A stretch of 34,189 nucleotides of DNA from Candidatus Hodarchaeota archaeon (GTDB lineage: Archaea; Asgardarchaeota; Heimdallarchaeia; Hodarchaeales; Hodarchaeaceae), in NCBI GenBank assembly GCA_016839785.1, contig JAEOTQ010000091.1:1-34189 (forward strand), written 5' to 3'. The notes beneath the pieces are model-generated. The model did not search any database. It was not told the DNA's origin and saw only the letters and a program-made list of their open reading frames with translations. A program made the position numbers and the translations under genes. Shown in pieces: positions 15,875 to 23,946 of the stretch (positions are counted from its first letter, which is position 1; each line of letters starts with the position of its first letter).

Positions 15875-17011
15875 TCAATTTGGTCGAGAAGAATACTCTC
15901 TTGGATCAATTCCATAAGCTCTTAACAAATCAGCCGTTTTTCCAGAGATAATAAGAGGTACTGATTTTAAATCTTCAATGGTTTGGCATCCAGTTAAGAA
16001 ACAGGTCAGTTTTATTTGATAAGCTATTTCGTCAATATATTTCAGCGATTTTTCGATCGAATGATCCTGTATAGCAAAAAGGAATGGAATAGCCATTCCA
16101 GCGGCATCTGCTCCAAGCGCTAGAAGTTTTGCAACTTCCATTCCATTTCTAACACCCCCAGATCCAATTATATGCCCGTTAAACGATTCTTTTGCAAAAA
16201 TAGTACTGATTGCTGTAGGAAGTCCCCAATCCCAAAAGACTTCTCCTGCTTTCTTATATATTGGATCTTCTGCCCTAATAGATTCAACACCAGCCCACGA
16301 TGTACCCCCCGCACCTTGAATATCAATTCCTGAAAAACCTGATTTCTTCAATCGTGTAATATCAAATCGACTAAATCCTGAACCTACCTCTTTTGCAATA
16401 ATCGGAGTTGAGGATTCATTAATTAGCTGTGTAACCTTTTCAATCAATTCGTGAAGGTTTGTATCACCATCAGGTTGTATTGATTCTTGTAATGGATTAA
16501 AATGAAATGCAATTGCATCTGCGCTAATCATTGAAACGATATCTTTCAAATCCGTTGAATTCAATCCTTCTACTATCTGTCCTGCACCAATATTACCAAT
16601 TTTAAGCGTCTTAGGGGCATTTTTTTTCACAATTTCAAATGATTCTCGAGCTTGAGTATCTTCCAGGGCAGCTCGTTGACTTCCGACACCCATCCCTATT
16701 CGTGTTTTTTCTGCTACCTGGGAAAGAAAATCATTAAGTTGTTGTGCAAATGAATGGCCACCAGTCATACCTGAAATGATCAATGGAAATTGTAATTTTT
16801 TTCCAAAAATTTTTATTGATAGATCTATATCTTCCATATTGAGATCTGTAGTCGCATGATGTACAAAAGAAATATCTTCCAAACCTGTGGTTATATTACG
16901 ACTTTGAACATCATGTTCAAGACATATCTGTAGATGAGCGAGTTTGCGTTCAGAAGTCATGGTATTTTCTTTTTTCTCATCAATTTCCTGAGGTGAGTTC
17001 TTAGATTCCAT
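15875..17011 (-). CDS. fni: Type 2 isopentenyl-diphosphate delta-isomerase
   Basis: IDI-2 interconverts IPP and DMAPP using FMN, NADPH and Mg. The 378-residue TIM barrel shows MTGG followed by a GMGVGSQRAAL segment, the HFNPLQE motif (HLNxxQE in the family), GIDIQGAGGTSWA and IGSGGVRNGMEVAKLLALGAD for phosphate and flavin binding. It is 42 bp downstream of ubiX on the same strand, so probably co-transcribed with it. The first 17 residues are polar; Met18 (MTSERKLAHL) matches usual IDI-2 starts and could be the true start. It supplies DMAPP to the locus. Confidence 0.96.
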   Translation of the reverse strand: MESKNSPQEIDEKKENTMTSERKLAHLQICLEHDVQSRNITTGLEDISFVHHATTDLNMEDIDLSIKIFGKKLQFPLIISGMTGGHSFAQQLNDFLSQVAEKTRIGMGVGSQRAALEDTQARESFEIVKKNAPKTLKIGNIGAGQIVEGLNSTDLKDIVSMISADAIAFHFNPLQESIQPDGDTNLHELIEKVTQLINESSTPIIAKEVGSGFSRFDITRLKKSGFSGIDIQGAGGTSWAGVESIRAEDPIYKKAGEVFWDWGLPTAISTIFAKESFNGHIIGSGGVRNGMEVAKLLALGADAAGMAIPFLFAIQDHSIEKSLKYIDEIAYQIKLTCFLTGCQTIEDLKSVPLIISGKTADLLRAYGIDPREYSSRPN

Positions 17012-17053
17012 TCCTGGTACACTTCTTAATGGTATTTTTGGCTATTAAAATAA

Positions 17054-17632
17054 TTATTCGGATTCTAGGACACTATTCCATCGTGTATATTTATCATTGG
17101 GTATATTGAAACAATCCAATATCTTACCCGAAATAAAATCGAATAAATCCTGAATCGTTTTTGGCTGGTGATAAAATCCAGGACTAAGAGGAAAGATTAT
17201 TGCACCATATAAAGAAAGTTGATTTAGATTATGGAGACATCCTGGACTTAAGGGAGTTTCTCGGATTCCGATAATTAATGGTTTTCTCATCTTTAACATT
17301 ATATCTGCTGCTCGAGATATTAGGTTTCCAGTATTTGCTGTTGCAATATTGCTAACAGTTTTGACCGTGGCTGGAATTACAACCATACCATCAACAATCG
17401 TAGAGCTACTTGAAATTGCTGCACTCATATCATTCTCTTTATAAAGATGGTCAGGCAACTGTTGAAAATCGTCTAATGTGCTAAATGACTCATTCTCTAT
17501 TAGATGTTTCGCCCATTTACTAATAATGACATGAGTCTCAACATCATGAGAGGATAGAGCTTTTATTACTTCAATTCCATAATCTATTCCAGAAGCTCCG
17601 GTTAAAGCAACAATAATTTTTTTAGGCTTCAA
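17054..17632 (-). CDS. ubiX: UbiX flavin prenyltransferase
   Basis: UbiX attaches a dimethylallyl unit to FMN to make prenylated FMN, the cofactor of UbiD decarboxylases. The 192-residue protein has the flavoprotein start VALTGASGIDYG, the SAAISSSSTIVDGMVVIPATVKT segment, the NLISRAADIMLK helix and RETPLSP, all typical of UbiX. It is the first gene of the ubiX-fni unit and lies divergent from mvaD. The UbiD partner is four genes away in the same locus, on the same strand. The cofactor's prenyl donor derives from this pathway's own product. Confidence 0.95.
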   Translation of the reverse strand: MKPKKIIVALTGASGIDYGIEVIKALSSHDVETHVIISKWAKHLIENESFSTLDDFQQLPDHLYKENDMSAAISSSSTIVDGMVVIPATVKTVSNIATANTGNLISRAADIMLKMRKPLIIGIRETPLSPGCLHNLNQLSLYGAIIFPLSPGFYHQPKTIQDLFDFISGKILDCFNIPNDKYTRWNSVLESE

Positions 17633-17718
17633 TAAATCAATCTCCAGTATAGACCTAACACTTGAAATTCTTTGGTTTAATAAAATGCTACTACGGAAAT
17701 AACTTCATTATGATTAAA

Positions 17719-17748
17719 TCAATTTTATTGAGATTAATTAAATAATAT
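17719..17748 (+). promoter_or_regulatory. TATA-like element and short dyad before mvaD
   Basis: The divergent ubiX/mvaD gap has a TATA-like TAAATAATAT at 17739-17748, giving a start near 17770 and a leader of about 12 nt for the ATG at 17782. Just upstream is a 13-bp dyad, TCAATTTTATTGA (17719-17731). It could hold a regulator controlling the eukaryotic-type branch, but AT-rich sequence makes such dyads easy to find by chance. Confidence 0.35.
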
Positions 17749-17781
17749 TTGTTCTACATACTCTTTATGGTTATGATGTTA

Positions 17782-18774
17782 ATGAAAGCAACTGCAATTG
17801 CAAATTCCAATATTGCACTAGTAAAGTATTGGGGAAAAAGAAATTCCGATTTAATGTTGCCTCACAATTCGAGTGTCTCAATGACATTAGATAATCTTAA
17901 TACAATGACAACAGTGGAGTTTAGTGAGAATTTTTCCGAATATGAGTTGAAAATTAATGGGAAAACTGCAAAGGGTGAAGAATTAAAAAGAGTAGCAACG
18001 CACCTAGACCTCTTGCAGGATTCATCCCCTCAGAAAAGATTTGCAAAGATTATGAGCGAAAGTAATTTTCCTAAAAAAGCTGGATTAGCTAGTTCGGCCT
18101 CTGGATTCGCAGCTTTGACTTTAGCAGGGACAAAAGCTTTGGGCCAAAATCTTACATTGAAAGAATTAAGCATTTTATCAAGAAGAGGAAGTGGGAGTGC
18201 GTCTAGAAGTATTCTTGGAGGATTTGTTGAATGGATTAAAGGTTCTCTATTAGATGGCTCTGATAGTCATGCTATCCAAATTGAAGAAGAAGGACACTGG
18301 CCAGAGCTTTCGATGATTGTTACTATTATATCAACTGAGGAAAAAAAGGTCTCCTCTCGTGCTGGGATGAGTCAAACAGTGAAGACTTCCCCTTTTTATG
18401 ATGCATGGTTGGACACAATTGAGTCTGATGTTGAAAAAATGAAACAAGCAATTACAAAAAAGAATTTCACTTTATTAGGAAAAATTGCTGAAAATAATGC
18501 GCTTAAAATGCATGCAACCATGCATACAACAATTCCACCCATACTATATTGGGAATCAGGGTCATTATCCATTATGAAAGAAGTATTAAAGCTCCGAGAG
18601 GAGGGAACTGAATGCTACTTCACTATGGATGCAGGACCACAGGTAAAAATTTTATGTCAACAAAAGGACTTAGAAACAATAAAATCAAGGGTTACTGAAT
18701 TAGATTTAGTTAAAGATATTATAATTTGCCATCCAGGTGGCGAGGCAAGATTAATTGAAGACCATTTATTTTGA
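17782..18774 (+). CDS. mvaD: Diphosphomevalonate decarboxylase family (GHMP)
   Basis: This GHMP-superfamily decarboxylase would convert mevalonate 5-diphosphate to IPP with ATP. From ATG 17782 (330 residues) it shows SNIALVKYWGKR (K15 and K19), GLASSASGFAAL (101-112), the SGSASRSILGGFVEW motif with catalytic-region R142, and TMDAGPQVK with catalytic Asp D273. These are the residues of true decarboxylases and argue against the decarboxylase-dead mevalonate-3-kinases. Phosphomevalonate decarboxylases of halophilic archaea share the same motifs, so the substrate is not proven; the adjacent phosphomevalonate kinase 21 bp downstream favours the diphosphate. The upstream in-frame Met-rich stretch from 17749 looks untranslated, because homologues begin at MKATA. 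Confidence 0.95.
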   Translation: MKATAIANSNIALVKYWGKRNSDLMLPHNSSVSMTLDNLNTMTTVEFSENFSEYELKINGKTAKGEELKRVATHLDLLQDSSPQKRFAKIMSESNFPKKAGLASSASGFAALTLAGTKALGQNLTLKELSILSRRGSGSASRSILGGFVEWIKGSLLDGSDSHAIQIEEEGHWPELSMIVTIISTEEKKVSSRAGMSQTVKTSPFYDAWLDTIESDVEKMKQAITKKNFTLLGKIAENNALKMHATMHTTIPPILYWESGSLSIMKEVLKLREEGTECYFTMDAGPQVKILCQQKDLETIKSRVTELDLVKDIIICHPGGEARLIEDHLF

Positions 18775-18795
18775 AATTCTGATGGAAGTCAAATC

Positions 18796-19911
18796 ATGAT
18801 TACTGTTTCAGCACCTGGTAAACTTATGCTCTCGGGTGAATGGAGTATACTAGAGAAAAATGTTAGGTGTATTGTTCTTGCAGTTCAACAGAGAGTTTTT
18901 GCCGCAATTCGACCTGAAGAGAGAATATCTATTCATTTGAAAGATTTTAACTTAACCTCAAGATGCCACTACTCTGACGGGGGTCTTTCTTTTAATATCG
19001 AGGATGGAAGACTAATTTTTGCAAAACACGCAATCGAATCTGCTCTAAGATATTTAGAAACGAGAAATATTCCGATACAACCTTTTTACTTGGAGACCTG
19101 GGGAGAAATCAGCATGGTAAAGAATGAGGAAACAGGACAGAAAATGAAGGTAGGGTTCGGGAGTAGTGCAGCTGCTGTTGTGGCAATTATAGCTGCTGTA
19201 TTACAATATCACACTGATTCTAATTTCACACAGCAAGATAAAGAAGTAATTTTCAAACTCAGCATAATTTCCCATTTCTTAGGGCAAGGAAAACTCGGAT
19301 CTGGATTTGATGTTGCCGCATCCACATTTGGTGGAGCTCTTATTTATAGGAAATTTGATCCAGACTGGCTACAACAGAAGATAACAAATGAACCCTTGAG
19401 TAAATTAGTCAATGAAGATTGGCCTCTATTGCAATACATACCAATAAGCTTGCCAGCAGAACTTGTGATGATGGTTGGGTTTACGGGAACGAGTGCTTCT
19501 ACAACAAAACTAGTTCAAGAAATGAAGCTGTATAAACAGAAATATCCTGATGGTTATTTTACTATAATTTCTAGAATTGCCGATGTAACTGAACAATTAA
19601 TAGAAGCCATTAAATCCAAGAATCAGTTATCAATCCTAAAATTACTCGACCAAAATAGAATTTTATTAGAAGAATTAAGTTTTGCCTGTTCGTGTCATTT
19701 GGAAATAGAAGCCCATCAAATCATGAGTCATACAGCTTCAAAATATGGAGCTGTAGCTAAATTTTCAGGTGCAGGAGGCGGAGATTGCAGTGTCGGAGTT
19801 TGTTTTAATGAATTAGATGCCGCCATAATTATCGAAGAATGGACAAAAAATGGGATTATGCCAATTGATATTGAATTTTCAAACGAGGGATTAAAAATAG
19901 AAAAAGAGTAG
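18796..19911 (+). CDS. mvaK2: Phosphomevalonate kinase (ERG8/MvaK2 type, GHMP)
   Basis: This 371-residue GHMP kinase phosphorylates mevalonate 5-phosphate to the diphosphate. The motifs are those of the ERG8/MvaK2 group: SAPGKLMLSGEWSILE at the N-terminus, KVGFGSSAAAVVAI for the ATP loop, GSGFDVAASTFGG, the GFTGTSASTTKLV segment and SGAGGGDCSVGV at the C-terminal motif 3. It follows mvaD by 21 bp in the same orientation. The gene ends 7 bp before the convergent stop of the dehydratase small subunit. In archaea this kinase is restricted to a few lineages, which makes its position inside a dehydratase/UbiD locus notable. Confidence 0.95.
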   Translation: MITVSAPGKLMLSGEWSILEKNVRCIVLAVQQRVFAAIRPEERISIHLKDFNLTSRCHYSDGGLSFNIEDGRLIFAKHAIESALRYLETRNIPIQPFYLETWGEISMVKNEETGQKMKVGFGSSAAAVVAIIAAVLQYHTDSNFTQQDKEVIFKLSIISHFLGQGKLGSGFDVAASTFGGALIYRKFDPDWLQQKITNEPLSKLVNEDWPLLQYIPISLPAELVMMVGFTGTSASTTKLVQEMKLYKQKYPDGYFTIISRIADVTEQLIEAIKSKNQLSILKLLDQNRILLEELSFACSCHLEIEAHQIMSHTASKYGAVAKFSGAGGGDCSVGVCFNELDAAIIIEEWTKNGIMPIDIEFSNEGLKIEKE

Positions 19912-19918
19912 AAGAGAT

Positions 19919-20308
19919 CTAAATTATCTCTACTACTCCGTTTGTACCATCAACGTATAATTTCATTCCAGTTTCGATTTTGCTGACATCTATTTGATCA
20001 ACACAAGGAATTTCAGAAATTATCGTGCCTACCGCAACGATCGCTTCACAATCATTAAGAACCAGTGCTTTTGGACCTTTTCCTGTCATAGCCATTTGAT
20101 AAATCACATAAGATCCTACTGTGGATCCTTTACCTGAAGGAAACACAAGAATCTTTTCATTGATACTTATTCCTTCCAATTCATGCCCTTTTTCGACAAC
20201 AACACCAGTTTCTGGATCGACACCGCCATAAAACGAAATACTGTCTTTTGTAACTAAAGCCTCGCCTGTAGCTTCTCCTTTATAGATTTTTCGACCTGTT
20301 AATTTCAT
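19919..20308 (-). CDS. Phosphomevalonate dehydratase small subunit (aconitase X swivel)
   Basis: This 129-residue swivel domain of aconitase X completes phosphomevalonate dehydratase, which makes trans-anhydromevalonate 5-phosphate. Signature segments are GRKIYKGEATGEAL, YGGVDPETG, FPSGKGSTVGSYVIYQM and EIPCVDQID. Its ATG overlaps the TAA of the large-subunit gene by one base, so translation is probably coupled. Family known from archaeal mevalonate pathway work on DUF126/aconitase X. Confidence 0.95.
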   Translation of the reverse strand: MKLTGRKIYKGEATGEALVTKDSISFYGGVDPETGVVVEKGHELEGISINEKILVFPSGKGSTVGSYVIYQMAMTGKGPKALVLNDCEAIVAVGTIISEIPCVDQIDVSKIETGMKLYVDGTNGVVEII

Positions 20309-21489
20309 TATGATAAAGCCTCCTCAAGACATTCATCCATTGACATTAATTTCACTGCAAACTTGTTCCGTCCTGATCCATAGTAACACATCTTTGCAGA
20401 ATCAGAGGCCAAGCCATGAAAACGCCCTTTGATCGGGGCCACTACACAGCAGGTATCCGCTGCAATTTTTGCACCAGAATCTTCAATCAGCTTCGTGAAT
20501 CCCATTCGATCAGCGATTTGTTTGGTTGGTCGAGCAGTGGTGATCCAGACTTCCTTCTTGGGGTTAATTGATTTTCCTTCTAACTTCTTGGCGATATACT
20601 CTAATTCCTTGAGGGAGGCATGAGGACAACCTAAACTAATGAAATCAATTTCGGTCTCATCGTCTAAATCTCCAAGAGCTTTCTTCATATCTTCCTCGGT
20701 AACAGTCTCTACTGTGTCAGGAACTTTGTTAACTCGATTTGGAGTAATATCTTTCATGTGAAATAACGCAACACCACCGTAAGTGGCATATGAGGCACAA
20801 AAGGATTTCAGCTCTTCTACTGAAGCCTTGGGGATCCCAGTAATATAAGTAATTTTTTTACCAAATCGATCTCCAAGTACTTTACCTAAGGCCCCGAATC
20901 GATAGGTATCCTTCACCTCGCATTTGACTTCGACAGTGAGTTCTGGTTGTCGATTTTCCTCAAGGTGAAATCCGTATTCAGGAGTCTTTCCAACAAGAGC
21001 GGCACTTAATGCACTTGGTCCTCCTTCACGATTGGTTTTGGCACCTAACACCGAATTGGCATAACAAACAGCAGAGCTCTCACTCCAGGAAATATGCTGG
21101 CCGTATGCAGGAAGATTGCCATATAGATAGGGAGTACAAGAACATGTCGTTATCACGCCCAACCTCCCAAAAGCCTCTATTACTCGTTGTTGATTTTCTG
21201 CGAACTCTTCACTAATAGCTAATTTACGCCATTCTTCTAAATCCATTCCTGCTGGATTTAAGGTCGTGAAAACCCGAACCTTTCCATCTTGTGCCATATT
21301 TTCAAGCCAAGATAGACCTGGTTCGTTCAAATTTGCATAACTCACACCAGCAATTTGTACAGAGGTAATATCAATTAATTTCTCGGCTCCGTAAATTTCT
21401 CCAAGAGTGATGAGAATATCCATAGCAGTTTGCGTTGCTTTACCGTATTTCCCTGCCGCCATATCTTGTTCTTCACGTGTTAATTCCAT
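20308..21489 (-). CDS. Phosphomevalonate dehydratase large subunit (aconitase X catalytic)
   Basis: This 393-residue aconitase-X catalytic subunit carries an Fe-S cluster and dehydrates mevalonate 5-phosphate. Candidate cluster cysteines are in TTCSCTPY, LGCPHAS and ADTCCVVAP. Other family marks are YANSVLGAKTNREGGPSAL and the C-terminal YYGSGRNKF. Length fits a stand-alone large subunit; fused bacterial forms are longer. It lies 12 bp downstream of the UbiD gene and overlaps the small subunit, forming the mvk-ubiD-large-small operon. Confidence 0.95.
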   Translation of the reverse strand: MELTREEQDMAAGKYGKATQTAMDILITLGEIYGAEKLIDITSVQIAGVSYANLNEPGLSWLENMAQDGKVRVFTTLNPAGMDLEEWRKLAISEEFAENQQRVIEAFGRLGVITTCSCTPYLYGNLPAYGQHISWSESSAVCYANSVLGAKTNREGGPSALSAALVGKTPEYGFHLEENRQPELTVEVKCEVKDTYRFGALGKVLGDRFGKKITYITGIPKASVEELKSFCASYATYGGVALFHMKDITPNRVNKVPDTVETVTEEDMKKALGDLDDETEIDFISLGCPHASLKELEYIAKKLEGKSINPKKEVWITTARPTKQIADRMGFTKLIEDSGAKIAADTCCVVAPIKGRFHGLASDSAKMCYYGSGRNKFAVKLMSMDECLEEALS

Positions 21490-21501
21490 ACCTAAACCTC
21501 T

Positions 21502-22812
21502 TTATTCATCTAAGTAGTCTTTTAAATCCACTTTAGGGAATTCTGCTCGTGCAAAGCTTTTACCTTTAGTTTTAAGGGGAGCAGTTAAGTCAAACCCAAT
21601 TTTATTTGTAAGTTTCGTTCCGGGTTCGGCACTGGGATCTAAGCTTGATCCAGGTTCTTTTCCAATATCGACTAAATCTCTCTCAGCTTGAAAACGAGTC
21701 GCCATTGACCATTCTACATCGAGAGGGTCATAAATATTGATGTCTTTGTCAACAACAAAGACGTGCTTGCAGCTTCGATGTCCTTGAAAAGCTGCATGGA
21801 TTGCTGTTTTGCCATCCTCTTCTTGTTTCTTATCAATTTTAACAATTGCATGCAACCAGGAAGAGCCACCAGGATTTACATTTACATCAATACAGGTTAC
21901 TCCTGCTTCGTTCACAGTTTTGAAAATCGTGGGTTCACGTGGCATTCCCATCAAGACTTTATGTTCTAATGCCCCAGGAATCAATGCTTGCCATATTGGA
22001 TTCTTCCTATGGGTAATATTTTTTACTTCAAACACAGGTTCGTCCCGAATAACATCGTAAGTTTCAGTTAAATCAATGAATGGTCCTTCATCTGATCGGT
22101 CTTTCATAAATACCCGCCCTTCAAGTACTACTTCGCAACCCGCAGGTATTAGAACATCAACAGATTTTGCTTTCACCACTTGAGTCGGAGCTAAGGCATT
22201 TGCAATTTCTAGTTCATTTATTCCAGTTTTTACTGAAGTTGCTGCTGCCACTAGAACATTAGGTGTATTTCCCACACAATAAACTGCATCTACTTCTCCA
22301 GTTCTTTCTAGAAATTTATAGAAATCTCTTCCCTTAATGATTCTCGTACTCATTCGGTTTTTTGAAAACTGCATGGCCCGATGAAAATCTAAGTTCTGCC
22401 CATATTCGGGATCTTTAGTCACAACAACTGCAGATGAAATATAACGGCCTCCATCTCTCTCATTATGTTTTAAGATAGGTAACTTGTCTAAATCCACTTG
22501 TTCCATGACTACTTCTTGACATGGAGCACTTGTAACCTCTTCAGGTGGACTCCTGTTATCTATGGCTTCCGTTAATTTTGGTATGAGTTGATCGGTAGAG
22601 ATTCCAAAATAATCTGCGATACTTATTTTCGTACTAAAGATATTTCCTGCAACACGAAAGTCTGGATACCCCTTTACATTTTCAAATAAAATAGGGGTTG
22701 GTTCAGCTGTTTTCAACACAGCAGCTGCCTCGATATCTATATCAACATTCTTTTTAATTTTAGTAATTCCATTCTTCTTTTCTAATTGAGTTACATACTC
22801 TCGAAAATCCAT
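21502..22812 (-). CDS. UbiD-family anhydromevalonate phosphate decarboxylase
   Basis: This 436-residue UbiD-fold enzyme uses prenylated FMN. In archaea the homologue beside aconitase X decarboxylates trans-anhydromevalonate 5-phosphate to isopentenyl phosphate. Visible features are PILFENVKGYP near the N-terminus, the RDGGRYISSAVVV prFMN and metal region, and DEGPFIDLTETYD bearing the conserved acidic residues. A later NPGGSSWLHAIVKI segment and an acidic end follow. Neighbours (mevalonate kinase upstream, dehydratase subunits downstream, ubiX in the same locus) fix the substrate better than sequence alone. Isopentenyl phosphate kinase, needed for the next step, is not in the window. Confidence 0.94.
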   Translation of the reverse strand: MDFREYVTQLEKKNGITKIKKNVDIDIEAAAVLKTAEPTPILFENVKGYPDFRVAGNIFSTKISIADYFGISTDQLIPKLTEAIDNRSPPEEVTSAPCQEVVMEQVDLDKLPILKHNERDGGRYISSAVVVTKDPEYGQNLDFHRAMQFSKNRMSTRIIKGRDFYKFLERTGEVDAVYCVGNTPNVLVAAATSVKTGINELEIANALAPTQVVKAKSVDVLIPAGCEVVLEGRVFMKDRSDEGPFIDLTETYDVIRDEPVFEVKNITHRKNPIWQALIPGALEHKVLMGMPREPTIFKTVNEAGVTCIDVNVNPGGSSWLHAIVKIDKKQEEDGKTAIHAAFQGHRSCKHVFVVDKDINIYDPLDVEWSMATRFQAERDLVDIGKEPGSSLDPSAEPGTKLTNKIGFDLTAPLKTKGKSFARAEFPKVDLKDYLDE

Positions 22813-22845
22813 TTTCCATTACACCTTCGTTATTGGATACTAAAT

Positions 22846-23784
22846 TTAAACTCCAATTTTTGTTTTCCAAGCTGCAAATCCTGCATCCTTCAATGCATTG
22901 TAAACTTTATCTTGAAGATCTGCTCCTGGAGTTAATGCATTAATATTTCCTCCGCGTCCTGTACCTGTAACTTTAGCGCCCAATGCGCCTGCATCGGTAG
23001 CAATTTTTACCATCTTATCCAATTTTTCATTAGAAACAGTAATTTTTTGTAATAACTCATGATTTTTATTCATGAGCTTGCCTACCTTCTCTAAATCCAT
23101 CATCTCGAGTGCGTGACGTCCATCCTTAACTACTGATTTGTACTCTTTGACTATCTCCTCAAACCACTTGGGATTCTCTTCTTTCTTTTCACGCACATCA
23201 GCAACAACGACACTCGTATTCGCAGTCATTCCTGAACTGGCTATCACCATGTCAACAGGCTTGGAAAGTTTGATGGTTTCCATCGTATTCGGACCCCCGT
23301 GTAGGTTTTTCACAAAATAGACTAATCCTCCAAATGTTGAAGCTGTGTTATCAATCCCACTTGGAGTTCCATGATACCCTTTTTCTCCTTCGTAAGCCGA
23401 TTCATTTATCCGAGTGTCATCCCATCCCATTTGGAATTCGTCACTGATTGCCCTCGCTAATGCTACACAACTCGCTGCAGATGCTCCCACACCACTGGCA
23501 CAAGTTAAATTTCCACCTAGAGTGATTTTTAATTTTTCTTTATCGAGATCTACGCCCATAAAGGTTAAAACATTTTTTATCGAAATTTTCTGCTCGTCAA
23601 ATTTCTTTTTTTTATACCCTGGCACTTCAGGCCGATTATCACTCAGTTCATATCCCTTACCCTCTTCAATTTCAACGATTGCTTCTGTGAAATCTCCAAT
23701 TGCAGAAGCCATGGCAGGCAAACCATAAACTACAAAATGTTCGCCGAAAAGTATCGTTTTACCAAATCCAGAACCTTTTCCCAT
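22846..23784 (-). CDS. Mevalonate kinase (GHMP)
   Basis: Mevalonate kinase makes mevalonate 5-phosphate, the branch point for both routes encoded here. I place the start at ATG 23784 (312 residues), with AGGTGG 10 bp upstream; an in-frame start at 23817 would add 11 basic residues. Motifs: GKTILFGEHFVVYGLPA, then SGVGASAASCVALARA for ATP binding, HGTPSGIDNTAS containing the likely catalytic Asp, and motif 3 as VTGTGRGGNINAL. That last motif differs from the usual TGAGGGGC, placing the enzyme in a minority TGxGRGG subtype. It leads the mvk-ubiD-dehydratase operon and is divergent from phosphoglycerate kinase. Confidence 0.93.
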   Translation of the reverse strand: MGKGSGFGKTILFGEHFVVYGLPAMASAIGDFTEAIVEIEEGKGYELSDNRPEVPGYKKKKFDEQKISIKNVLTFMGVDLDKEKLKITLGGNLTCASGVGASAASCVALARAISDEFQMGWDDTRINESAYEGEKGYHGTPSGIDNTASTFGGLVYFVKNLHGGPNTMETIKLSKPVDMVIASSGMTANTSVVVADVREKKEENPKWFEEIVKEYKSVVKDGRHALEMMDLEKVGKLMNKNHELLQKITVSNEKLDKMVKIATDAGALGAKVTGTGRGGNINALTPGADLQDKVYNALKDAGFAAWKTKIGV

Positions 23785-23946
23785 TTTTATTTTCCACCTA
23801 AATCTTATCTTAGCCAAATTTCCTTGTTATTGGATGAATTAATTGATCTTTATCGATATTTTCAGATGAAAGTTTTTCCTCACTTGTCTTTTTTTGTCTA
23901 GCTAACTGAGAAAAGTTGAAAAAAAAAAGGATATCTGCGTATAAGT

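What the first reader, a model, noticed from the sequence alone, without database searches (positions are those of the whole stretch)
15875..23784. Archaeal and eukaryotic-type mevalonate branches encoded in one locus
Seen: mevalonate kinase, phosphomevalonate dehydratase (both subunits), UbiD decarboxylase and UbiX sit with phosphomevalonate kinase, diphosphomevalonate decarboxylase and type 2 IPP isomerase within 8 kb. Known: from mevalonate 5-phosphate, archaea normally use either the dehydratase/UbiD/isopentenyl-phosphate-kinase route or the kinase/decarboxylase route. Inference: this organism has a branched pathway with the mvaD-mvaK2 pair inserted between ubiX and the dehydratase operon. 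It may save ATP or Fe-S/prFMN under different conditions, or mark an intermediate in the history of the eukaryotic pathway. Key residues are intact in both branches, so neither looks decayed. MvaD could alternatively be a phosphomevalonate decarboxylase.
Basis: partly seen in the sequence, partly recalled or inferred. Interest (0 to 1): 0.82.

Follow-up and report, generated by a model that had tools for sequence, protein, structure and literature searches.

The report
Asgard dual mevalonate locus, mobile intron
An Asgard archaeon keeps the genes for two alternative routes to its lipid building blocks side by side (already reported for this group), and in close relatives a key gene of one route is interrupted by a 34-36-base insert that is predicted to be an RNA intron and appears to have moved between lineages together with a little neighbouring sequence.

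Summary
The window, whose nearest relatives are Hodarchaeales (Asgard), encodes MK, phosphomevalonate dehydratase (PMDh) L+S, UbiD, UbiX and IDI2 together with a phosphomevalonate kinase/diphosphomevalonate decarboxylase (PMK-MVD) pair. IPK and HMG-CoA reductase lie elsewhere in the genome. The contig is not chimeric: three other assemblies share the pair's junctions. The co-presence is published (Zhu et al. 2024, PMC11052028). MVD has diphosphate-type residues; its tree puts it with DPANN/CPR sequences and rejects a clade with eukaryotes, so 'intermediate of the eukaryotic pathway' is not supported for MVD. New here: the pair is an optional cassette, inverted in the window's clade, co-oriented in Hodarchaeum mangrovi, a pseudogene scar in G038, missing from the locus in four others. 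The relatives also show something the window lacks: four PMDh-L genes carry a 34-36-nt stop-containing insert at one site that folds like a bulge-helix-bulge intron, and whose removal restores the protein. Nineteen of 120 listed PMDh-L protein clusters are gene calls starting exactly at 'exon 2'. One insert sits in an 80-175-nt tract that matches another clade. Two-subunit-type splicing endonuclease and RtcB genes are present in most genomes of the genus. Splicing, enzyme activities and switching between routes are untested.

The parts
15875..17011 (-). IDI2, type 2 IPP isomerase, shared last step
   Evidence: TIGR02151 380 bits, cut-off 281
17054..17632 (-). UbiX, flavin prenyltransferase (makes prFMN for UbiD)
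   Evidence: TIGR00421 194 bits, cut-off 109
17749..18774 (+). MVD, diphosphomevalonate decarboxylase; first gene of the inverted cassette. The listed start is TTG; an ATG at 17782 fits the 330-aa relatives better (inference)
   Evidence: TIGR01240 336 bits (171); K and M of diphosphate-type enzymes; dN/dS 0.07-0.20
18796..19911 (+). PMK, phosphomevalonate kinase; second gene of the cassette
   Evidence: TIGR01220 216 bits (166) against TIGR01219 (ERG8) 123 (377); GFGSSAA and SGAGGGD present; dN/dS 0.04-0.10
19919..20308 (-). PMDh small subunit
   Evidence: NF003046 179 bits (163), PF01989
20308..21489 (-). PMDh large subunit (AcnX); uninterrupted here
   Evidence: PF04412 490 bits; Cys118, Cys288, Cys347 lie at the places of the three cluster ligands, by the alignment to 7cnr and the ligands named in PMC10040528 (passages)
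21243..21250 (-). Empty insert site: here GCAGGA|ATGG is continuous; G037, G041, G042 and G041:C158 hold 34-36 nt at this junction
21502..22812 (-). UbiD-family decarboxylase (trans-anhydromevalonate 5-phosphate decarboxylase, by context)
   Evidence: TIGR00148 354 bits (245)
22846..23817 (-). MK, mevalonate kinase, makes the branch-point intermediate
   Evidence: TIGR00549 231 bits (163)

Best explanation
The locus encodes both known ends of the mevalonate pathway from one branch point, mevalonate 5-phosphate: the archaeal route (PMDh, UbiD with UbiX, and a predicted isopentenyl phosphate kinase elsewhere in the genome) and a classical PMK-MVD pair, which would likely serve as an optional bypass that needs neither Fe-S nor prFMN. 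Shown by sequence: the genes, their family matches, intact motifs, purifying selection, and the pair's behaviour as a cassette (inverted in the window's clade, co-oriented in G036, a pseudogene scar in G038, absent from the locus in G039, G043, G045 and G046). Shown: in four related PMDhL genes a 34-36-nt insert with a stop codon lies at one site while both halves of the gene stay under purifying selection, and around one insert (C158) the exon sequence matches insert carriers of another clade. Inferred: the insert is an archaeal mRNA intron, cut by the tRNA-splicing endonuclease at a bulge-helix-bulge and joined by RtcB; it entered the C158 lineage by recombination with a carrier; in carriers dehydratase synthesis depends on splicing. 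Untested: enzyme activities, expression, splicing, and any switching between the routes.
For: Family matches; shared junctions in three other assemblies; dN/dS; diphosphate-type residues of MVD. In the class IPK is over its cut-off in 40 of 44 AcnX-positive genomes but 3 of 14 others; family f7 keeps MVD in 7 of 9 genomes with AcnX in 0 of 9 and IPK over cut-off in 0 of 9. Insert: same site and frame-restoring removal in 4 of 4; fold z -7.0, -3.5, -3.5 for the three 36-nt inserts; four inner-helix pairs changed on both sides, covariation score reached by 6 of 500 shuffles; 19 of 120 listed PMDhL clusters begin exactly at exon 2; two endonuclease paralogues over the cut-off in 10 of 12 genus genomes, RtcB in 11 of 12; borrowed tract around the C158 insert, 7 of 7 sites, 0 of 20,000 permutations, controls.
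Against: No RNA or enzyme data. 4 of 44 AcnX-positive genomes lack an IPK over the cut-off, among them single-contig G045. PMK is over its cut-off in only 4 of 58 class genomes; in f7 the kinase beside MVD scores 42-67 bits where listed, so a full classical route there is not proven. The C158 insert folds no better than 199 of 1000 shuffles of it, and my shape test at the canonical register failed in the minimum-energy fold of all four; a 5-bp alternative is 0.2-0.8 kcal/mol better than the canonical register in the three 36-nt inserts. One measure (further pair types) is not unusual (90 of 500). The 18 database clusters other than B3_Heim's are without DNA here. P0304, an exon-2-only call, has exon 2 identical to insert-free G038. 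The window's own gene has no insert.
Confidence: 0.7

Rival explanations
1. The insert in PMDhL is not an intron but a gene fission: a stop codon plus an internal start at exon 2's ATG makes two chains, an N-terminal peptide of about 85 aa and a 312-aa chain, which assemble with PMDhS.
For: Exon 2 begins with ATG (GTG in one database cluster), and G041 has GAGGT shortly before it. Public gene calls read it that way.
Against: Fission needs no conserved fold, yet inner-helix pairs change together; the GAGGT is not kept in G042 or C158; the insert-free gene is one chain in the window's genome and seven others.
Confidence: 0.15
2. The insert carriers have a dying dehydratase, and the PMK-MVD pair has taken over.
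For: Stop codons in frame in G037, G041 and G042, a frame break in C158. In family f7 AcnX is absent where MVD is present.
Against: Both parts of the gene have dN/dS 0.02-0.07 between carriers wherever dS was not saturated; IPK is over its cut-off in G037, G041 and G042; the C158 locus has an insert and no cassette between PMDhS and UbiX.
Confidence: 0.05
3. MVD acts on mevalonate 5-phosphate (PMD type) and, with IPK, forms a haloarchaeal-type route; PMK then has another role.
For: IPK is present in the genome, and enzymes of this family are often misannotated (PMC11052028).
Against: K and M of diphosphate-type enzymes; 336 against 180 bits for the two decarboxylase models; a PMK gene lies beside MVD in G000, G037, G040 and G042; f7 genomes keep MVD without an IPK over the cut-off.
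Confidence: 0.08
4. The pair is the ancestral form of the eukaryotic pathway, kept from the Asgard ancestor of eukaryotes.
For: Zhu et al. [quoted passage not shown]
Against: MVD tree: Hodarchaeal rows with Diapherotrites and CPR, eukaryotes outside, joint clade rejected, AU p 0.0008. PMK fits the bacterial-type model better than the ERG8 model. Only four eukaryotic chains were used and the eukaryotic branch is long.
Confidence: 0.12
5. The contig is a chimera around 17.6-19.9 kb.
For: The pair runs against the direction of its neighbours.
Against: The same inverted pair and junctions in G037, G040 and G042.
Confidence: 0.01

Closest known systems
Mosaic mevalonate locus of Hodarchaeales, Zhu et al. 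2024 (PMC11052028; parts 1-4 of 6 read)
   Same: PMK, DMD, AcnX and AMPD on one contig in Hodarchaeales; eukaryote-type genes also reported in order JABLTI01.
   Different: Not stated in the parts read: inversion of the pair, the scar, the tracking of IPK with AcnX, and the insert in PMDhL. My MVD tree disagrees with their favoured Asgard-to-eukaryote descent.
Archaeal modified mevalonate pathway (PMDh, AMPD, IPK; PMC10040528, passages)
   Same: All its specific genes are in this genome; the three cluster cysteines of PMDh are kept.
   Different: Here a complete classical pair sits inside the gene cluster.
cbf5 pre-mRNA introns of Crenarchaeota (PMC2738675, passages)
   Same: Short (36 bp in two Staphylothermus species), at one site in a protein gene, BHB-like fold cut between second and third bulge residue, patchy gain and loss, hetero-oligomeric endonuclease.
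   Different: Other gene (a lipid-precursor enzyme), other phylum (Asgard), and a recombination tract around the insert. Splicing was confirmed there with cDNA, not here. That paper also notes putative introns predicted in other protein genes and 12-bp ones in an archaeal virus.
BHB intron in the 5' UTR of HVO_1309, Haloferax volcanii (PMC7714728, passages)
   Same: An mRNA processed by the splicing endonuclease, 46 nt removed.
   Different: It lies outside the reading frame; the PMDhL insert breaks the reading frame of a conserved enzyme.

Membership tests
Archaeal (PMDh/AMPD/IPK) mevalonate route | PMDh large and small subunits | tested here: met
   PF04412 490 bits, NF003046 179 (163)
Archaeal (PMDh/AMPD/IPK) mevalonate route | three cluster-binding cysteines of PMDhL | tested here: met
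   Cys118, Cys288, Cys347 at the aligned places
Archaeal (PMDh/AMPD/IPK) mevalonate route | UbiD-family decarboxylase with UbiX | tested here: met
   TIGR00148 354 (245), TIGR00421 194 (109)
Archaeal (PMDh/AMPD/IPK) mevalonate route | isopentenyl phosphate kinase in the genome | tested here: met
   G000:C247, NF040647 156 bits (120)
Archaeal (PMDh/AMPD/IPK) mevalonate route | activity of the enzymes | not testable with these tools
   needs assays
Classical (PMK/MVD) mevalonate route | phosphomevalonate kinase | tested here: met
   TIGR01220 216 (166); substrate untested
Classical (PMK/MVD) mevalonate route | decarboxylase specific for the 5-diphosphate | tested here: met
   by sequence only: TIGR01240 336 (171) and diagnostic K and M
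Haloarchaeal-type route (PMD + IPK) | PMD-type decarboxylase residues and score | tested here: not met
   180 bits against a cut-off of 475; K and M instead of N and H
Archaeal BHB mRNA intron (the insert in related genomes, not in the window) | removal restores the conserved protein | tested here: met
   4 of 4
Archaeal BHB mRNA intron (the insert in related genomes, not in the window) | 4-bp helix between two 3-nt bulges with cuts after the second bulge base | tested here: inconclusive
   Possible in all four, and gives the right product; the minimum-energy fold is shifted, and C158 has a G-A mismatch in the helix
Archaeal BHB mRNA intron (the insert in related genomes, not in the window) | splicing endonuclease and ligase genes in the organism | tested here: met
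   PF01974 in 12 of 12 genus genomes, two paralogues over the cut-off in 10; RtcB in 11 of 12
Archaeal BHB mRNA intron (the insert in related genomes, not in the window) | spliced transcript or cleavage in vitro | not testable with these tools
   no RNA data at hand

The most novel reading that the evidence does not exclude
Hodarchaeal phosphomevalonate dehydratase genes are home to a tiny, horizontally spreading mRNA intron: a 34-36-nt bulge-helix-bulge element in a central lipid-precursor enzyme of Asgard archaea that moves between lineages with 80-175 nt of co-converted exon, is gained and lost many times among near relatives, and makes the archaeal mevalonate branch depend on the tRNA-splicing enzymes, while the neighbouring PMK-MVD cassette offers a splice-independent bypass.
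Probability: 0.35. Interest if true: 0.85.

Novelty: new variant of a known kind. Interest (0 to 1): 0.6.

Why it matters
The double mevalonate locus is in print, but its history as an optional, invertible cassette, and the loss of AcnX and of a recognisable IPK in family f7, make it a natural experiment on how one isoprenoid route replaces another in archaea close to eukaryotes. The PMDhL insert matters more. PMC7714728 (2020, passages) knew one BHB intron in an archaeal mRNA, cbf5, and added one in a 5' UTR. An intron in a lipid-precursor enzyme of Asgard archaea, patchy among close relatives and apparently spread by local recombination, would show that protein-gene introns are live and mobile in this lineage. 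It would also explain why many public gene calls of this enzyme are cut short, and it makes the question whether protein-coding BHB introns can move directly testable.

Tried and rejected
Chimeric contig: rejected by the same junctions in G037, G040 and G042.

MVD as phosphomevalonate decarboxylase: rejected on residues and scores.

PMDhL of the carriers as a pseudogene: rejected on dN/dS.

Copies of the insert elsewhere: a covariance-model search of 58 class genomes (with stricter filters) gave the four PMDhL inserts at 73.8-88.4 bits; the next three hits (25.2, 24.7, 21.2 bits) look like chance. No Rfam match up to E 0.1 in the four insert loci.

A homing endonuclease beside the insert: none recognised. 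Large unknown ORFs near PMDhL in G037, G041 and C158 have no Pfam match up to E 0.05; G042 has none between UbiD and PMDhL.

My test of how often shuffled inserts form the bulge shape was too lenient to be of use (57-323 of 1000). The minimum of 16 state changes on the exon-2 tree is inflated by weak forks; five clusters without the TLNPAG string (P0252, P0259, P0261, P0273, P0275) were dropped there. In the MVD tree G031, G032 and G051 fell out because my start motif missed them, and only 28 of the 120 listed database hits were used. In one search the G037 rows for UbiD and MK are wrong matches and were ignored. In the tests of one clade the exon-1 tree also rejected the carriers as one clade, weakly (p 0.036).

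Mended: the identity range, the number of genomes whose endonuclease pair I read (four), the flank identities, and missing results against my reading.
Full report
WHAT IS THERE. The window is contig C43 of a 4.04-Mb, 84.5% complete genome. Its MVD and PMK have their closest named relatives in Heimdallarchaeota / Hodarchaeales MAGs. Seven score over a curated NCBIfam cut-off; PMDhL has no such model over its cut-off but matches PF04412 with 490 bits. On the minus strand the order is MK-UbiD-PMDhL-PMDhS, then PMK and MVD on the other strand, then UbiX-IDI2. The same genome has an isopentenyl phosphate kinase (156 bits, cut-off 120) and an HMG-CoA reductase. Archaeal HMG-CoA synthase is only a partial match near a contig start, below its cut-off.

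ALREADY IN PRINT.

IS THE DOUBLE PATHWAY REAL? MVD, PMK, PMDhS, UbiX and IDI2 have dN/dS 0.04-0.22 among these genomes, UbiD and MK 0.02-0.06 among G000, G040 and G042. PMK of G037 is split between two frames at residue 35. Motifs in the window's proteins are intact. MVD has Lys and Met where 6n0x has Asn and His. I recall, from no call, that 6n0x is a phosphomevalonate decarboxylase and 6n0z an engineered variant of it.

DISTRIBUTION. In the 58 class genomes MVD is over its cut-off in 15, AcnX in 44, PMK in 4 (G036's is cut by a contig end) and IPK in 43. IPK is over its cut-off in 40 of the 44 AcnX-positive genomes and 3 of the 14 others. The AcnX-positive exceptions are G005, G043, G045 and G046; G043 and G045 have a weaker IPK-like domain in a 572-602-aa frame, as have eight other genus genomes including G000. 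Family f7 has MVD over the cut-off in 7 of 9 genomes, AcnX in 0 of 9 and IPK over the cut-off in 0 of 9. There the classical route may have replaced the archaeal one, though the kinase beside MVD scores below the PMK cut-off. G025 also has AcnX and an MVD hit, but its decarboxylase has Gln and His at the diagnostic places, so I do not count it as a double pathway.

THE CASSETTE HAS A HISTORY. In the window's genus (12 genomes) MVD is over the cut-off in 5 (G000, G036, G037, G040, G042). In G000, G037, G040 and G042 the pair is inverted against the operon. In G036 (Candidatus Hodarchaeum mangrovi) MVD follows PMDhS and PMK precedes UbiX in the operon's own direction, on two contigs that end inside the pair. 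In G038 a PMK C-terminal remnant with a frameshift and a broken third motif lies between PMDhS and UbiX in that direction. G039, G043, G045 and G046 have only 88-133 bp there. G043 has a PMK C-terminal part elsewhere, beside a stretch of N. G041 has a PMK end at a contig edge. G044 has neither AcnX nor MVD (71% complete). On the exon-2 DNA tree the inverted carriers and G041 form one clade (100/100), G036 and G038 are sisters (81/88), and the four genomes without cassette at the locus group with C158 (88/94). The simplest reading is presence before the first two groups split, one inversion and at least one loss; for the cassette-less clade gain and loss cannot be told apart.

NOT AN ANCESTOR OF THE EUKARYOTIC ENZYME, AS FAR AS MVD SHOWS. 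In a 47-row tree Hodarchaeal MVD groups with Diapherotrites and then CPR and other DPANN rows; four eukaryotic PDB chains branch outside, and a joint clade is rejected (AU p 0.0008). Eukaryotes are thinly sampled, their branch is long, and the database rows were picked from the nearest hits. This weakens the evolutionary inference and does not settle it; Zhu et al. and PMC12338589 (passages) favour an Asgard source.

A HIDDEN INSERT IN THE DEHYDRATASE GENE. The class search for AcnX flagged one in-frame stop in G037, G041 and G042. Each has 36 extra nt at the same codon junction, TLNPAG|MDLEEW. A second PMDhL on contig G041:C158, whose exon 2 groups with G039 (97/97) and which may be mis-binned, has 34 extra nt there. 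The window's gene and those of G036, G038, G039, G040, G043, G045 and G046 have none. Leaving the insert out gives the uninterrupted protein in 4 of 4. Of 227 phylum genomes 185 have a PMDhL match; among the rows listed a stop appears in these three and in G146, whose match is not longer (weaker matches were not listed).

WHY AN INTRON. The insert with its exon flanks can fold into an outer helix, a 4-bp helix CUGG:CCAG, two 3-nt bulges and an inner hairpin. Cutting after the second base of each bulge (the rule given for cbf5 introns, PMC2738675, passages) gives CUGGAAUGG, the reading of the insert-free gene of G040. Energies against shuffles of the whole stretch: z -7.0, -3.5 and -3.5 for the 36-nt inserts. 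With the insert alone shuffled, 0, 6, 9 and 199 of 1000 fold at least as well (G037, G041, G042, C158). Four inner-helix pairs change on both sides; the covariation score is reached by 6 of 500 shuffles and falls when partners are slid, while the count of further pair types is ordinary (90 of 500); with four related sequences these numbers are not probabilities. The minimum-energy fold prefers a 5-bp alternative by 0.2-0.8 kcal/mol, and C158 has a G-A mismatch, so the cut register rests on the restored frame as much as on the fold. Between carriers dN/dS is 0.05-0.07 in exon 1 and 0.016-0.053 in exon 2 where dS is not saturated. Ten of 12 genus genomes have two splicing-endonuclease paralogues over the cut-off. 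In the four genomes whose pair I read (G000, G037, G041, G042) one paralogue has Tyr, His and Lys at the catalytic places and the other lacks the His (residue roles recalled; both match the Pfam endonuclease domains in G000). That fits the (alpha-beta)2 enzymes with broad specificity (PMC6379350, passages). RtcB is found in 11 of 12.

HOW WIDESPREAD. Among the 120 listed PMDhL protein clusters, 19 are 312-313 aa long and begin exactly at exon 2 (18 with MDLE, one with VDLE), and one partial of 293 aa begins there too. P0292 is B3_Heim's 'hypothetical protein CEE45_13920', whose insert is seen in DNA; the other 18 are inferred. On an exon-2 tree of 89 rows, 24 scored as carriers, at least 16 changes of state are needed. 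Weak forks inflate that number, but supported neighbours differ in state (P0255/P0308, G039/C158, G042 against G040 with P0243). P0304 and G038 share an identical exon 2 and differ in state: either very recent change or a miscall.

EVIDENCE OF MOVEMENT. Along the gene without insert, C158 matches its own clade (G039, G043, G045) at 11 of 11 informative sites before nt 180, the carriers of the other clade (G037, G042) at 7 of 7 sites from nt 188 to 267, around the insert at nt 243, and its own clade again at 49 of 53 sites after that. None of 20,000 permutations gave such a run. With insert-free donors (G000, G040) the best run is ordinary (3454 of 5000); with all five clade members as donors it is ordinary too (1333 of 5000), because few sites are fixed; with insert-free recipients the lowest value was 216 of 5000 (G039, another place). 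The carriers are not one clade on exon 2 (AU p 4e-37). So the insert most likely came into the C158 lineage by recombination with a carrier, with 80-175 nt of exon. Whether the insert drives this is unknown; the region recombines anyway: G037 and G042 are 88-98% identical in 300-nt windows on both sides but 72-85% across PMK-PMDhS-PMDhL.

HOW IT MOST LIKELY WORKS. Mevalonate kinase makes mevalonate 5-phosphate. From there PMDh ([4Fe-4S], PMC10040528) and UbiD (prFMN, made by UbiX) lead to isopentenyl phosphate and, through IPK, to IPP. PMK and MVD lead to IPP with two ATP and no such cofactors. IDI2 serves both. The chemistry is established knowledge; a bypass under oxygen or iron stress is my inference. 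In insert carriers the dehydratase would need its mRNA spliced, which could tie that branch to the tRNA-splicing enzymes; that is speculation.

NOVELTY. Searches of open-access papers listed none that I recognised as reporting an intron in PMDh/AcnX or a protein-gene BHB intron in Asgard archaea. Subscription journals are not covered, and the listed papers were seen by title and start of abstract unless named above. PMC7714728 (passages) counts one earlier mRNA BHB intron (cbf5) besides its own in the 5' UTR of HVO_1309; PMC2738675 notes putative ones predicted in other protein genes. I file the locus as known and the insert as a new variant of a known kind.

Noticed in passing
L058 (G037), L050 (G041), L048 (G042), L118:6036-6097 (G041:C158): 34-36-nt insert with a stop codon at one junction of the PMDhL gene, foldable as a bulge-helix-bulge intron; absent from the window's own gene.
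   Followed up: yes
L119:9000-11700 against L112 (G042 and G037): Two genomes 88-98% identical on both sides differ at 72-85% identity exactly across PMK-PMDhS-PMDhL: a replaced block, so this stretch recombines between lineages.
   Followed up: partly
L112:4333-7851 (G037), L118:1228-5745 (C158), L116:2308-5517 (G041): Large ORFs (1172, 1505 and 1069 aa) beside PMDhL without Pfam match; the first two share 57% identity over about 950 residues, with a stretch reading FAPDVII...AVIQLKG that resembles a nuclease motif by eye.
   Followed up: partly
L004:691-2394 (G000:C14): A 567-aa protein joins an amino-acid-kinase domain that is IPK-like (73.5 bits, cut-off 120) to a metallo-beta-lactamase domain; similar frames in ten genus genomes, and in G043 and G045 it is the best IPK-like match.
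   Followed up: partly
L113:8014-8174 (G038): Decayed PMK C-terminal end between PMDhS and UbiX, in the direction of the operon: a scar of the lost cassette.
   Followed up: yes
L121:6020-6337 (G043): A PMK C-terminal part in an open frame far from the mevalonate locus, beside a stretch of N; whether a whole gene is there cannot be told.
   Followed up: no
L112:9531-10639 (G037) and L122:9845-11142 (G045): PMK of G037 and UbiD of G045 are each split between two frames with a 4-nt overlap, which looks like single-base indels rather than inserts.
   Followed up: no
Family f7 (G049-G057; L124, L125): MVD beside a distant kinase, without AcnX and without an IPK over the cut-off: a lineage that may have changed over to the classical route.
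   Followed up: partly
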